From NCBI GenBank assembly GCA_016794305.1, contig JAEUKN010000001.1:1-64000 (forward strand): DNA of 64,000 bases. The letters run 5' to 3'. A program made the translations under genes and the position numbers. Positions 14,593 through 21,640 of the stretch are shown piece by piece. The stretch's first letter is position 1. Each line of letters begins with the position of its first letter. The DNA comes from Alphaproteobacteria bacterium (lineage in GTDB: Bacteria; Pseudomonadota; Alphaproteobacteria; Micavibrionales; Micavibrionaceae). The notes beneath the pieces are model-generated. The model did not search any database and was not told where the DNA came from. It saw only the letters and a program-made list of their open reading frames with translations.

Positions 14593-14665
14593 ATAAAAGG
14601 CCATTTTCCCCTAACGGTTGAGTGTTTCTTATGTGATTTTTAACCAAATCACGCGAAAATGGGGC

Positions 14666-15892
14666 ATGACTCATAAACCACCCTCTCAAGAGCTTCAGAT
14701 TGTTTCACAAGAAGATTTGGACGAAATCATCAAGAAACATGCTCGTTTTGATAAATGTCTGGCGGGTGGGGCGCGGGCCAATGTGAAGTTCAAATCATTG
14801 GTGGGATTGAGATTTCACGGGGCCAATTTATCGGGTGCAGATTTTACCGGATCAGATTTGCGTAATTGTGATTTTTCCAACGGTATATTTTTGGGCAGCG
14901 TGTTTTACGGATGCAACCTGCAGCATAGTAATTTTGAACATGCCGATTTGCGTCGCGCGGATTTCCGCGGGGCCGATGTGACCTCCGCCAATATGAACGG
15001 CGCGAACTTAGAAGGTGCCGATTTGCGCCAAGGGTCCAAGGTCATCACCCAATCCGGGCGCGGTGCGGGAACGGTGTTGAGTGAGGGAAAAACCACCCTG
15101 GCCGGGGCTGATCTTGAAAATGCCAATTTGACTAAGGCCAGAGCCGCCGCGCTTGATCTCTCCCATGCTGATTTGTCCCATGCGCGCATGGTTCAGGCGG
15201 ATTTAAGCCATGCCAATTTAAGCAACGCCGATCTTCAAAATGCGAATTTAACCAAGGCCAATCTTGCGGGGGCGGAGTTGGAGGGGGCTGATTTCACCAA
15301 CGCCACCACCACCGATATGAAGATTAATGATGATACGCAAATCCCCGCGCCGCCGCCATTGATCATGAAATATGAAGACCCGATTGACCCGTTGGTTGAG
15401 ATATTAAAAGCCCACGCCCAATGGTTACAACACACGGGAACCAAAGGTCAGCAAGCCAAATTTGAGGGAGTCGATTTTCGCCATATTCATGATCTTGGTC
15501 GTTATAGTTTGACCATGTTGCGTGCGCAAAATTGTAATTTTGAATCGATGACCCTCTTAAATGCGCAAATGCAATCCAGTCATTTTGACGGGAGCAATTT
15601 TGGTCGAGTGGTATTGAAACAAACAGATGCGCGCGGATCAAGCTTTGTGGGGGCAAAATTTGTGCATGCGGATTTGCGCGAGGTGAATTTCTCACCGCTT
15701 TATTTCTCAACATCCAAACGAAAATGCGTGGATTTAAGCGGCGCGGATTTGAGTTATGCTGACCTTTCCAGAGCCAATCTCGATTCCGCGATTTTGGATG
15801 GCACAATTTTAATCGGTGCGAAATTGGATCATGTCAATTTGAAAAAACTAGACCTTTCCAAGGCGATATTGGGTGAACCACCATCGGAGTAA
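14666..15892 (+). CDS. Pentapeptide-repeat protein
   Basis: 408 residues with two blocks of A(D/N)LxX pentapeptides, about residues 45-215 and 300-400, each predicted to form a right-handed square beta-helix. Examples are GANLSGADFTGSDLRN and SHADLSHARMVQADL. Between them is a ~60-residue linker (PAPPPLIMKYEDPIDPLVEI). Residues 1-40 are non-repeat. Function is not predictable: relatives include DNA-gyrase-protecting MfpA/Qnr proteins and many of unknown role. ATG at 14666 is preferred; a TTG at 14618 is in frame. Convergent with purD, 14 bases apart. Confidence 0.9.
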   Translation: MTHKPPSQELQIVSQEDLDEIIKKHARFDKCLAGGARANVKFKSLVGLRFHGANLSGADFTGSDLRNCDFSNGIFLGSVFYGCNLQHSNFEHADLRRADFRGADVTSANMNGANLEGADLRQGSKVITQSGRGAGTVLSEGKTTLAGADLENANLTKARAAALDLSHADLSHARMVQADLSHANLSNADLQNANLTKANLAGAELEGADFTNATTTDMKINDDTQIPAPPPLIMKYEDPIDPLVEILKAHAQWLQHTGTKGQQAKFEGVDFRHIHDLGRYSLTMLRAQNCNFESMTLLNAQMQSSHFDGSNFGRVVLKQTDARGSSFVGAKFVHADLREVNFSPLYFSTSKRKCVDLSGADLSYADLSRANLDSAILDGTILIGAKLDHVNLKKLDLSKAILGEPPSE

Positions 15893-15906: not shown

Positions 15907-17199
15907 TTATTTTGATGATGATCCAGATACAGACTCAACCGCGCGCCAGGCAATGTCGCGGCGGCAAAACCCCTCCGGCCAGTCAATCAAATCAACGGCG
16001 CCATAGGCCGCGCTTCGGGCCTCAGTCACGTTAGTTCCGGTGGCGCAAACGCCCAAAACACGGCCGCCATGACTGATAATCTCATCCCCCGATTGGGCCG
16101 TTCCCGCGTGAAAAATCCGGACGTTTTCGCAGGCATCAGCCCGATCAAGCCCGCGAATGAAGGTACCCTTTTGGTAATCCCCCGGATAACCCTTTGCCGC
16201 CATCACCACGCACAGCGAGGGGTCGGGCGACCAGTCAACCTGCGCATCCTTTAAATTGCCCTGCGCACATTGATATAAAACATCCACCAGATCAGACCGC
16301 CAGCGCAGCATCAAACATTGGCATTCCGGATCCCCAAAACGGGCATTATATTCAATCAATTTCGGGGCGCCATCCTTGACCATCAAGCCGGCATAGAGGA
16401 CCCCCTGAAACGGTGTTCCTTCGGTGATCATGGCCGTCACGGTCGGTTCCAAGATTTCTTTTAAAATGCGCTGATTGAGTGCATCATCATTCAACCGTGC
16501 GGGGGAATAGGCCCCCATGCCGCCGGTGTTGGGGCCGGTATCGTTATCGCCCACACGTTTATGATCCTGCGCCGAGGTGAGGGGAAGTAAGTTTTTACCA
16601 TCGCACAGGGCGAAATAACTGACCTCTTCACCATCCAAAAATTCTTCAATCACCACGGAGGCACCGGAATTGCCGAAGAGATTGCCCGAGAGCATGTCAT
16701 GCACTGCCGCTTTGGCTTCATCCACCGTCATGGCGACCACCACGCCCTTACCCGCGGCCAAGCCATCGGCCTTGATCACAATCGGCGCCCCCATTTGGTC
16801 AATATATTTATGCGCCGCCGCAATGTCGGTAAAGCGTTCATAGGCAGCGGTGGGGATGTTATATTTACGGCATAAATCCTTGGTGAAACCCTTGGACCCC
16901 TCAAGCTGCGCAGCTTCTTTAGATGGGCCGAACGTCACAATCCCTAAGGCCCGTAACCGGTCGGCAAGCCCCAAAACCAAGGGGATTTCAGGACCCACAA
17001 TCACAAAATCAATTTTTTGGGTTTTGGCAAAATCGACCAGAGATTCGATTTGATCAACCGCGATATCCACGCACTCGGCAATTTGGGAAATGCCCGCATT
17101 ACCGGGGGCCACATATAATTGGTTGCATAAAGGGGATTGCAAAATTTTCCAAGCCAGCGCATGTTCACGCCCGCCCGAGCCCACCAGAAGTATATTCAT
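15907..17199 (-). CDS. purD: Phosphoribosylamine-glycine ligase (GARS)
   Basis: 430-residue ATP-grasp enzyme of step two of purine synthesis, joining phosphoribosylamine and glycine. N-terminus MNILLVGSGGREHALAWK is diagnostic. Also visible: VGPEIPLVLGLAD, the ATP-grasp core KADGLAAGKGV, VVIEEFLDGEEVSYFAL, and the metal-binding NARFGDPECQ. Full length and ungapped. Transcribed away from the Ala/Pro-rich envelope gene's end; purH is 11 kb distant. Confidence 0.97.
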   Translation of the reverse strand: MNILLVGSGGREHALAWKILQSPLCNQLYVAPGNAGISQIAECVDIAVDQIESLVDFAKTQKIDFVIVGPEIPLVLGLADRLRALGIVTFGPSKEAAQLEGSKGFTKDLCRKYNIPTAAYERFTDIAAAHKYIDQMGAPIVIKADGLAAGKGVVVAMTVDEAKAAVHDMLSGNLFGNSGASVVIEEFLDGEEVSYFALCDGKNLLPLTSAQDHKRVGDNDTGPNTGGMGAYSPARLNDDALNQRILKEILEPTVTAMITEGTPFQGVLYAGLMVKDGAPKLIEYNARFGDPECQCLMLRWRSDLVDVLYQCAQGNLKDAQVDWSPDPSLCVVMAAKGYPGDYQKGTFIRGLDRADACENVRIFHAGTAQSGDEIISHGGRVLGVCATGTNVTEARSAAYGAVDLIDWPEGFCRRDIAWRAVESVSGSSSK

Positions 17200-18870: not shown

Positions 18871-19139
18871 CGAACATCCGGCCCTTAAAATTAAAAATTG
18901 AAACATATCATCACGGTTCATCACAGTTTTTAGATCAGATGGATTGGGTGATTTTCACCCGCAAAAAAACTGTGATGCACAATGGATCATTTATTCCATA
19001 ATTTAAATGCACTCAAAAAGCAATGTTTTTCGACTCTTCCAGCTGATATTTTTGCCAAAACCATCGGAAATAAGTTTATGAGCCTTGATCGTCAAATTTT
19101 TCTTGTGTTTTGAGTCCACTCAGGTTAGAGATTAAGATA
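18871..19139. other. Intergenic region ahead of the leuA leader
   Basis: AT-rich divergent promoter region. It holds the start region of the envelope gene on the minus strand and presumably the leu promoter on the plus strand (TTGAGT at 19110-19115 and TAAGAT at 19133-19138 have 17-base spacing but are weak matches). No gene seen. Confidence 0.4.
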
Positions 19140-19205
19140 ATGGATTGTTTTATGATTATTCAAAGTCGTGCCGTATTGCTCCTTCTTCGACTTACCAACC
19201 CCTGA
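19140..19205 (+). CDS. Leucine-rich leader peptide of leuA (LeuL-like)
   Basis: A short frame reads MIIQSRAVLLLLRLTNP from the ATG at 19152, with four consecutive Leu codons (TTG CTC CTT CTT) and one more after an Arg. An in-frame ATG at 19140 would add MDCF. The stop TGA (19203-19205) lies inside the 5' arm of a terminator hairpin. It is 100 bases upstream of 2-isopropylmalate synthase, the first enzyme of leucine synthesis. This is the classic arrangement of a leucine attenuator, in which stalling at Leu codons controls transcription. Confidence 0.8.
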   Translation: MDCFMIIQSRAVLLLLRLTNP

Positions 19206-19252
19206 TCGGGCGGTTGGTTTCTTCGCACGTCCCATCAGGGGCCAAAATTTTT
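19194..19252 (+). promoter_or_regulatory. leuA transcription attenuator with alternative hairpins
   Basis: Terminator: CCCCTGAT plus GGG (19199-19210, one bulged C) pairs with CCCATCAGGGG (19231-19241), an 11-bp stem with a 20-base loop, followed by CCAAAATTTTT (T run 19248-19252). Alternative: ACCAACC (19194-19200), just after the last Leu codon, pairs with GGTTGGT (19212-19218). The two share bases 19199-19200 and cannot form together. This is consistent with leucine-dependent attenuation; whether the alternative acts as antiterminator is inferred. Confidence 0.75.
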
Positions 19253-19302
19253 CCCACTTAAATTATTTCGGTTAAAATTCGATATTTTGAAAGGTATTTT
19301 TT

Positions 19303-20925
19303 ATGTCTGCGCCCGACCACATTATTTCTGACCAGATTATTATTTTTGACACAACTTTGCGCGATGGCGAACAATCCCCCGGATGTTCGATGAATTTGGA
19401 AGAAAAATTGCGTATGGCCCATTTGCTCGATGATATGGGGGTGGATGTGATTGAAGCCGGATTCCCCATTGCATCCCGCGGGGATTTCGAAGCGGTGGAG
19501 GCAATCTCCAAGGCAGTCAAAAACGCCACCATTGCCGGGCTGTGCCGCGCCGTAAAACGCGATATTGAGGCCAGTTTTGAAGCGATTAAGTGCGCGCCCA
19601 AACGCCGTATTCACACCTTTATTTCCACCTCTCCGTTGCACATGAAATATAAATTGCAAATGTCGCCGGAGGCCGTGTTGGCGGCGATTGCCGACTCGGT
19701 GGAATTCGCCCGCCAATTCACCGATGATGTGGAATGGTCAGCCGAGGACGGCAGCCGGACCGAGGATGATTTCTTGGCCCGCGCCGTGGAAATCGCCATT
19801 AAATCAGGCGCCACAACGATTAATATTCCAGATACTGTGGGCTATGCCATGCCCGCCGACTATGCTGCGAAATTCACGATGCTGCGCAACCGTGTACCCA
19901 ATATTGATCGCGCGATTTTATCCGTCCATTGTCACAATGATTTGGGGTTGGCGGTTGCCAATTCTCTGGCCGGTGTGGCCGCCGGAGCGCGCCAGATTGA
20001 ATGCACCGTCAACGGCATTGGGGAACGCGCGGGTAATGCCGCGTTAGAAGAAGTGGTGATGGCCATGCGCACCCGCCCCGATGCGATGCCGTTTAAAAAT
20101 CATATTAAAACGGAGATGATCACCAAAATCTCGCGCACCTTATCCTCCATCACCGGTTTTGTGGTGCAACCGAATAAGGCTATTGTTGGGGCGAATGCCT
20201 TTGCGCATGAAAGCGGCATTCATCAAGACGGTATGCTCAAAAATGCGCAAACCTATGAAATTATGACCCCTGAGTCGGTGGGGCTCCATCGCTCATCCCT
20301 CGTGCTGGGCAAACATTCGGGGCGGCATGCGTTTAAAACGCGGTTGCAGGATTTGGGATATGGTTTGAGTGAAGAAGAAATCGAAGATGCGTTCCAGCGT
20401 TTCAAGGATTTGGCCGATAAGAAAAAAACAATTTATGATGAGGATATTATTGCATTGGTTGAGGATGAAACCGGGCGCGATAAGGACAATATTAAATTCC
20501 TTTCGCTTTTGGTTCAGGCCGGCACGCGGGGGCCGCAAATTGCCACGATTGAAATGGATGTCGATGGTACGCGCCAAACCGCCATGTGTGAAGGCAACGG
20601 TCCCGTTGATGCAATCTTTAAAGCCATCCGTATGATTATCCCGCATGAGGAAGCATGTCTGCAACTCTATCAGGTGCACGCCGTCACCGGTGGCACGGAC
20701 GCACAGGCGGAGGTGAGTGTAAAAATCGAAGAACATGAAAAACAAGTGGTGGGACAGGGCACAGACGCCGATACGCTCGTGGCCTCGGCTAAGGCCTATA
20801 TCCATGCGCTCAACAAACTCATGGATAAACGGCAACGCACCGCCCCCAATGCTACCGACAGCACCACCGAAAGCATGGCAAGTGTTGAGCCAAGTCTGAC
20901 CGCACAAGAGCGTGTAGGCCCCTAA
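19303..20925 (+). CDS. leuA: 2-isopropylmalate synthase
   Basis: 540-residue enzyme condensing acetyl-CoA with 2-oxoisovalerate, the committed step of leucine synthesis. Catalytic TIM barrel: [13 protein letters not shown] at residue ~15, the metal-binding [15 protein letters not shown] and [10 protein letters not shown] motifs. The C-terminal ~150 residues form the LeuA dimer/allosteric domain for leucine feedback. AAAGG lies eight bases before the ATG. An attenuator precedes the gene. The stop TAA overlaps the first bases of a family A repeat. leuB, leuC and leuD are not in the window. Confidence 0.97.
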
Positions 20926-21262: not shown

Positions 21263-21640
21263 ATGAACACATTGCAAAAATTTGAAGCCATGCAAGTGGC
21301 TAAACTCACTGAAAATAAAACGATTCCCGACTTTGCACCCGGTGACACGGTTAAGGTCAACGTAAAAATTGTTGAGGGCAATCGTGAGCGGGTTCAGGCC
21401 TATGAAGGCGTTTGCATCGCCCGTGGCGGTCATGGAATTAATGCCAAATTCACCGTTCGCAAAATCAGCTATGGCGAAGGTGTGGAACGTGTATTTCCGC
21501 TCTTGTCCCCGCGTATTGAGAGCATTGAGGTCATCCGTAAAGGCTCCGTGCGCCGTGCGAAACTTTATTATCTTCGTAATTTGCGCGGTAAAAAAGCACG
21601 GATTGAAGAGAAAAAAGATTATAAATCCGCTGAAAAATAA
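21263..21640 (+). CDS. rplS: Ribosomal protein L19
   Basis: 125-residue large-subunit protein at the 30S-50S interface. Family signatures: [20 protein letters not shown] near residue 25, [14 protein letters not shown], and [21 protein letters not shown], ending with [22 protein letters not shown] lies six bases ahead of the ATG. In many bacteria rplS ends the rpsP-rimM-trmD operon; here it stands alone after a repeat element. An intrinsic terminator follows. Confidence 0.97.

What the first reader, a model, noticed from the sequence alone, without database searches (positions are those of the whole stretch)
19140..19252. Leucine attenuator with leader peptide upstream of leuA
Seen: a leader frame with four consecutive Leu codons plus one, whose stop lies in the 5' arm of an 11-bp terminator stem with T run (19199-19252), and a competing hairpin 19194-19200/19212-19218. 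Known: Leu-rich leader peptides and attenuators control leu genes in many proteobacteria. Such short leaders are normally left unannotated.
Basis: partly seen in the sequence, partly recalled or inferred. Interest (0 to 1): 0.62.

Follow-up and report, generated by a model that had tools for sequence, protein, structure and literature searches.

The report
Leucine-sensing leader switch before leuA
A short leucine-rich leader reading frame in front of the leucine-synthesis gene leuA, ending inside a conserved RNA hairpin, recurs across Alphaproteobacteria and probably lets a ribosome starved of leucine uncover the leuA ribosome-binding site, rather than work through a transcription terminator as first thought.

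Summary
In detail: an in-frame Leu run (TTG CTC CTT CTT CGA CTT, 19176-19193) whose stop codon lies in the 5' arm of a strong hairpin, about 100 nt before leuA. It is not local chance. The same arrangement precedes leuA in 23 of 30 fetched leuA loci of relatives, and a covariance model finds it in 58 of 142 genomes of the order and 111 of 385 sampled genomes of the class. The stop-codon stem is conserved with compensatory changes. Rfam has no match.

The transcription-attenuation reading is not supported by relatives. The hairpin lacks a U-tract (9 of 100 copies; background 5%), and the competing hairpin is not above chance across genera. Instead the Leu-codon run is complementary to the leuA Shine-Dalgarno region, lineage by lineage (25 genera, z about -4.5; swapped-leader decoys null). 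I favour translational attenuation: the Leu run sequesters the leuA ribosome-binding site unless a ribosome stalls on it. The closest described system is the actinobacterial LEU element.

Caveats: there are no expression data, and the window's own copy pairs weakly with its SD (-6.6 kcal/mol, p 0.27), an exception. The likelier leader start is ATG 19152 (17 aa), not 19140.

The parts
19110..19138 (+). Promoter-like pair TTGAGT (19110-19115), 17-nt spacer, TAAGAT (19133-19138)
   Evidence: Best-scoring pair in my scan; in the order set the -10 end lies 2-14 nt before the leader ATG in 66% of 56 loci against 24% of shuffles. A consensus match only.
19152..19205 (+).
   Evidence: Sequence; leader length in 7 congeners; Leu enrichment in this frame only.
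19176..19193 (+). Leu-codon run TTG CTC CTT CTT CGA CTT: sensing codons and, in most relatives, the strand complementary to the leuA Shine-Dalgarno
   Evidence: Leu at codon -4 in 57 of 57 order loci and 55 of 57 class loci; SD complementarity in relatives. In this copy the SD pairing is weak.
19199..19212 (+). 5' arm of the stop-codon stem, containing the last codon CCC and the stop TGA 19203-19205
   Evidence: Fold and pair probabilities about 0.9; covariation in 100 copies.
19228..19241 (+). 3' arm of the stop-codon stem (..AUCAGGGG)
19194..19218 (+). Competing hairpin (19194-19203 with 19208-19218)
   Evidence: -13.6 kcal/mol alone; shared in the genus, not above chance across genera.
19248..19252 (+). 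T run, 6 nt after the stem; not conserved as a U-tract
19289..19294 (+). leuA Shine-Dalgarno GAAAGG
   Evidence: Sequence; start chosen by SD match and ATG.
19303..20925 (+). leuA, 2-isopropylmalate synthase, 540 aa
Evidence: ORF; homologues in 50 of 58 relatives.

Best explanation
A leucine-responsive leader of leuA that most probably acts on translation. A nearly leaderless transcript encodes a 17-aa Leu-rich peptide. With enough charged tRNA-Leu, ribosomes pass through and finish at the stop codon inside the CCCCUGA..UCAGGGG stem; the Leu-codon run is then free to pair with the leuA Shine-Dalgarno, the stop-codon stem folding between them, and leuA is poorly translated. When leucine is short, a ribosome stalls on the Leu codons and covers that strand, and the leuA ribosome-binding site opens. 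Shown here by comparison of sequences: the leader frame, the stem, and Leu-run/SD complementarity above chance in the family. Inferred: stalling, direction of regulation, and the role of the stem. In the window's own copy the Leu-run/SD pairing is weak, so this copy may be relaxed or altered.
For: Own leader/SD pairs beat permuted ones: 23 loci, -13.1 against -10.2 kcal/mol, 0 of 10000; 57 loci, 25 genera, one per genus: z -4.5, range -6.0 to -3.1, largest p 0.004. With the SD core fixed and flanks shuffled: p 2e-10 (57 loci) and 2e-6 (55 class loci); leaders swapped from other species give 0.49 and 0.88. Whole-leader folding pairs the SD core with the Leu run at P > 0.5 in 40 of 57 and 31 of 55 loci, and masking the run raises mean SD access from 0.19 to 0.52 and from 0.24 to 0.41. 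No U-tract after the stem. Stem covariation. Leu frame conservation.
Against: The window's own copy: -6.6 kcal/mol, p 0.27, P 0.23, no gain on masking. CUCCUU is anti-Shine-Dalgarno by itself, so much pairing is generic: swapped runs still pair at 0.57 and 0.31. Per locus the extra complementarity is modest (11 of 57 and 12 of 55 at p < 0.05), and two decoys show weak signals: reversed leader in the class set p 0.02, upstream stretch in the order set p 0.008. A control window in the class set also deviated (z -3.1). Stalling at the first Leu codons would not cover the last ones. No expression data.
Confidence: 0.6

Rival explanations
1. Classical ribosome-mediated transcription attenuation: the stop-codon hairpin is a terminator and the 19194-19218 hairpin an antiterminator favoured when a ribosome stalls at the Leu codons.
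For: Both hairpins are strong in the window; the T run 19248-19252; the competing hairpin is shared in the genus with one compensatory double change; the order-wide permutation gives p 0.03.
Against: No U-tract in 91 of 100 copies, A follows the stem in 71 of 100; in the window the T run is 6 nt away; competing helix not above chance across genera or class; a ribosome resting at the stop codon would itself cover the 5' arm (inference).
Confidence: 0.2
2. Rho-dependent or RNA-decay control: ribosome release at the stem exposes the following untranslated stretch to Rho or RNase, and the leader senses leucine through stalling, while the SD pairing is incidental.
For: A stop codon fixed in a stem with no U-tract, then about 40-160 nt of untranslated RNA.
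Against: Does not explain the lineage-specific Leu-run/SD complementarity. No Rho site was sought.
Confidence: 0.12
3. Ribosome hand-over: the Leu-run/SD helix and the stem bring a ribosome that finishes at the leader stop close to the leuA start, so the leader raises leuA translation.
For: The stop codon lies in the stem in 55 of 57 order loci, between the two strands of the Leu-run/SD helix.
Against: The helix would hide the very SD it should serve; Leu enrichment would be unexplained.
Confidence: 0.05

Closest known systems
LEU element upstream of leuA in Actinobacteria (Seliverstov et al. 2005, PMC1262725; passages and the leucine section read)
   Same: Upstream of leuA; leader ORF with a run of Leu codons; the Leu run is described as pairing with the leuA Shine-Dalgarno as the base stem around further structure; no terminator in the LEU element description.
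   Different: Different phylum; the LEU element is described as a conserved pseudoknot, whereas here the inner element is a simple stem holding the leader stop codon, and I found no supported pseudoknot. The authors doubted leader translation as the signal and proposed a protein. R1 was not run on Actinobacteria.
leu operon attenuator of E. coli and relatives (leuL; Rfam leucine leader) (recalled)
   Same: Leu-rich leader peptide upstream of leuA; alternative hairpins.
   Different: The enterobacterial one has an intrinsic terminator with a U-tract (recalled); here there is none in relatives, and Rfam searches did not match.
ilvB leaders of Actinobacteria with Ile/Val/Leu runs overlapping the terminator hairpin (PMC1262725, section read)
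   Same: Short leader ORF that overlaps the hairpin.
   Different: Those hairpins are described as followed by poly-U runs; these are not.
Other alphaproteobacterial leaders: trpL of Sinorhizobium meliloti (PMC10117765, passages) and the ilv leader of Caulobacter (PMC4117421, passages)
   Same: Leader peptides in the same class; trpL is leaderless, as seems likely here.
   Different: The Caulobacter ilv leader is described with a rho-independent terminator. 'leuA' occurs 0 times in either main text.

Membership tests
Classical amino-acid transcription attenuator | Leader ORF rich in codons of the regulated amino acid | tested here: met
   Leu 5.9 of the last 13 codons in frame, 57 loci.
Classical amino-acid transcription attenuator | Intrinsic terminator (stem plus U-tract) before the structural gene | tested here: not met
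   9 of 100 copies have at least 5 T in 8 after the stem, background 5.3%; in the window the T run is 6 nt away.
Classical amino-acid transcription attenuator | Conserved antiterminator exclusive with the terminator | tested here: inconclusive
   Present in the window and genus; not above chance across genera or class.
Classical amino-acid transcription attenuator | Leucine-dependent premature transcript end | not testable with these tools
   Needs 3'-end mapping.
Translational attenuator by Shine-Dalgarno sequestration | SD of the regulated gene pairs with a leader segment, conserved by co-variation | tested here: met
   Family level.
Translational attenuator by Shine-Dalgarno sequestration | The same in the window's own copy | tested here: not met
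   -6.6 kcal/mol, p 0.27, P 0.23.
Translational attenuator by Shine-Dalgarno sequestration | Ribosome stalling on the leader opens the SD | not testable with these tools
   Only modelled by masking the run.
Actinobacterial LEU element | Leu run paired with the leuA SD as base stem | tested here: met
   Family level; compared with the description.
Actinobacterial LEU element | Conserved inner pseudoknot and common descent with actinobacterial copies | not tested
   No actinobacterial sequence was fetched or searched. A leader/stem-interior helix of pseudoknot type had no support.
Any Rfam 15 family | Score at Rfam threshold | tested here: not met
   No match on the element in the window or in 16 carrier loci.

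The most novel reading that the evidence does not exclude
A class-wide, undescribed regulatory RNA of Alphaproteobacteria in which sensing codons and anti-Shine-Dalgarno are the same nucleotides: Leu codons both read the leucine supply and lock the leuA ribosome-binding site, with the leader stop codon built into the stem between them. It would be an independent counterpart of the actinobacterial LEU element, arising readily because CUC-CUU is anti-Shine-Dalgarno by nature.
Probability: 0.5. Interest if true: 0.72.

Novelty: new variant of a known kind. Interest (0 to 1): 0.58.

Why it matters
If right, leucine synthesis in many Alphaproteobacteria is controlled by an RNA switch absent from Rfam, and annotating it as an attenuator with terminator would mislead. 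It also gives a simple general idea: leucine codons are complementary to ribosome-binding sites, so a Leu-rich leader can be its own lock, without terminator, antiterminator or ligand pocket. The idea can be tested in cultured carriers.

Tried and rejected
Rfam on the window stretch and on 16 carrier loci: nothing on the element. Pfam and NCBIfam with leader peptides: nothing, as expected for such short peptides. The terminator reading was tested by counting T after the stem and set aside. The competing-helix or pseudoknot reading was tested by permutation and is weak. A conserved role of C-terminal proline was considered: the last residue is Pro in 50 and Leu in 7 of 57 order loci, and in several of the Leu-ending copies the stem change is matched on the other arm (read by eye), so pairing seems to be what is kept. 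In the window copy one fold pairs leader 19165-19175 with leuA 19308-19317; I did not test whether it is conserved.

Search for a published alphaproteobacterial leuA leader: searches listed none that I could see, in an open-access library only. The 2004 survey of proteobacterial attenuators (Vitreschak et al.) appears in the reference list of PMC10117765 but is not held, so an earlier description cannot be excluded.

Rows dropped: from 59 order loci, L064 (contig ends before leuA) and L100 (no leuA, weak hit), leaving 57. From 61 class hits, L113 (minus strand, weak), then L121, L153, L107 (leuA start misassigned) and L103, L101 (same family as the order set), leaving 55; the frame count dropped only L121, L103 and L101, leaving 57. 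One search was given 100 loci that I chose from those with a hit. In one search, 56 of 57 loci could be scanned.

Full report
What is in the window. The T run begins 6 nt after the stem, too far for a normal intrinsic terminator, and the scan finds only a small nested hairpin with that tail. A promoter-like pair ends at 19138 and the seven congeners with the element have 17-aa leaders, so translation more likely starts at ATG 19152. leuA starts at 19303. One leuA and one copy of the element were found in the genome.

Relatives. leuA was found in 50 of 58 relatives. Of the 30 loci fetched, 23 have a Leu-rich leader running into this stem upstream of leuA; one of them, L024, reads past the usual stop site. 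Seven do not (L011, L013, L019, L020, L023, L025, L030). Of 20 further stretches taken around weaker leuA matches or wider flanks, the pattern found none and the model one, L040.

Model and spread. A covariance model R1 from 21 sequences matches 58 of 142 genomes of the order at E <= 0.01, 111 of 385 genomes drawn from the class at E <= 0.01, and 31 of 299 drawn from the phylum at E <= 0.001, of which 30 are in the class and one, at E 7.6e-4, is outside it. Many class hits are weak and the model was built from the order, so the class numbers are rough. All 16 class loci picked by the model alone (L181, L184-L198) have leuA downstream. Of 80 named genomes picked by leuA, 44 have a plus-strand model hit and one a weak minus-strand hit. 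Carriers include Rhodoblastus acidophilus, Bradyrhizobium sp. STM 3809, Microvirga massiliensis, Thalassospira sp., Rhodovibrio sodomensis and Methylosinus sp. (names). None of the Pelagibacteraceae loci appears among the hits.

The stem is real. In 100 aligned copies 90.5% of 1283 cells pair, 12 of 15 pairs change on both sides, and 120 cells carry double changes against 34 (sd 4.5) in shuffles; sliding the partners destroys this. The alignment was fitted to the model, which favours it. Variants such as CCTCTAAGTG with CACTTAGAGG show matched changes by eye. A stop codon sits in the arm in 55 of 57 order loci (TGA 42, TAA 9, TAG 4).

The reading frame is real. Leu makes up 5.9 of the last 13 codons in the leader frame against 0.4 and 1.6 in the other frames (57 order loci), and 4.9 against 0.4 and 1.6 (57 class loci); the leader frame is highest in 54 of 57 in both sets, and several different Leu codons are used at most positions. 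The class loci were parsed by taking the frame with most Leu, which biases the class figure upward.

It is not a usual terminator. At least 5 T in 8 after the stem occurs in 9 of 100 copies, against 5.3% of 3085 control windows in the same leaders; the first base after the stem is A in 71 of 100.

The Leu run matches the leuA Shine-Dalgarno. Own pairs beat permuted pairs in 23 loci (0 of 10000) and in 57 loci from 25 genera taken one per genus (z -4.5, largest p 0.004). In 55 class loci z is -4.7, although a control window next to the hairpin also deviates (z -3.1), which may be because it overlaps the SD window in short leaders (overlap inferred). With the SD core fixed and flanks shuffled the signal stays (p 2e-10 and 2e-6) and leaders from other species show none (0.49 and 0.88); reversed and upstream decoys give 0.11, 0.02, 0.008 and 0.92. 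In whole-leader folds the SD core pairs with the Leu run at P > 0.5 in 40 of 57 and 31 of 55 loci; masking the run opens the SD. Swapped runs also pair but less well (0.57 against 0.69; 0.31 against 0.51), as expected since CUCCUU is anti-Shine-Dalgarno by itself.

The window's own copy. Its SD GAAAGG pairs poorly with its Leu run: -6.6 kcal/mol, with 96% of other-genus SDs doing better, p 0.27, P 0.23, and masking hardly helps. Six of its seven congeners with the element have P of 0.6 or more. So the family mechanism may be weakened here. The competing hairpin is intact here and shows one compensatory double change in the genus (L005), so a different balance in this species is possible.

Mechanism and standing. 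The best-supported account is translational attenuation: a stalled ribosome hides the Leu run and frees the leuA ribosome-binding site. Conservation and complementarity are shown; stalling, direction and strength of control are inferred. The nearest description I read is the actinobacterial LEU element (PMC1262725). I saw no report of an alphaproteobacterial leuA leader in eight searches of the open library, but the most relevant survey is not held.

Noticed in passing
L013, L019, L023, L025, upstream of leuA: In these relatives the element is missing and leuA follows closely an ORF with the start ..LLEILVCPLTKGPL.. (looks like a small Trm112/UPF0434-type protein, recalled), as if the leader was lost when leuA joined another transcript.
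   Followed up: partly
Leaders of the order set, for example L012, L021, L084, L092: The promoter-like -10 ends most often 6-7 nt before the leader ATG, suggesting leaderless leader transcripts across the order.
   Followed up: partly
First base after the stem in 100 copies (A4): A follows the stem in 71 of 100 copies, unexplained.
   Followed up: no
window 19165-19175 and 19308-19317: In the fold of the window's own leader this stretch pairs with the first leuA codons (pair probabilities up to 0.84); it could replace the missing SD pairing, or be chance.
   Followed up: no
window 14618-15892 +, 15907-17199 -, 21263-21640 +: Neighbouring ORFs look like a pentapeptide-repeat protein, purD and ribosomal protein L19 (by eye, recalled names).
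   Followed up: no
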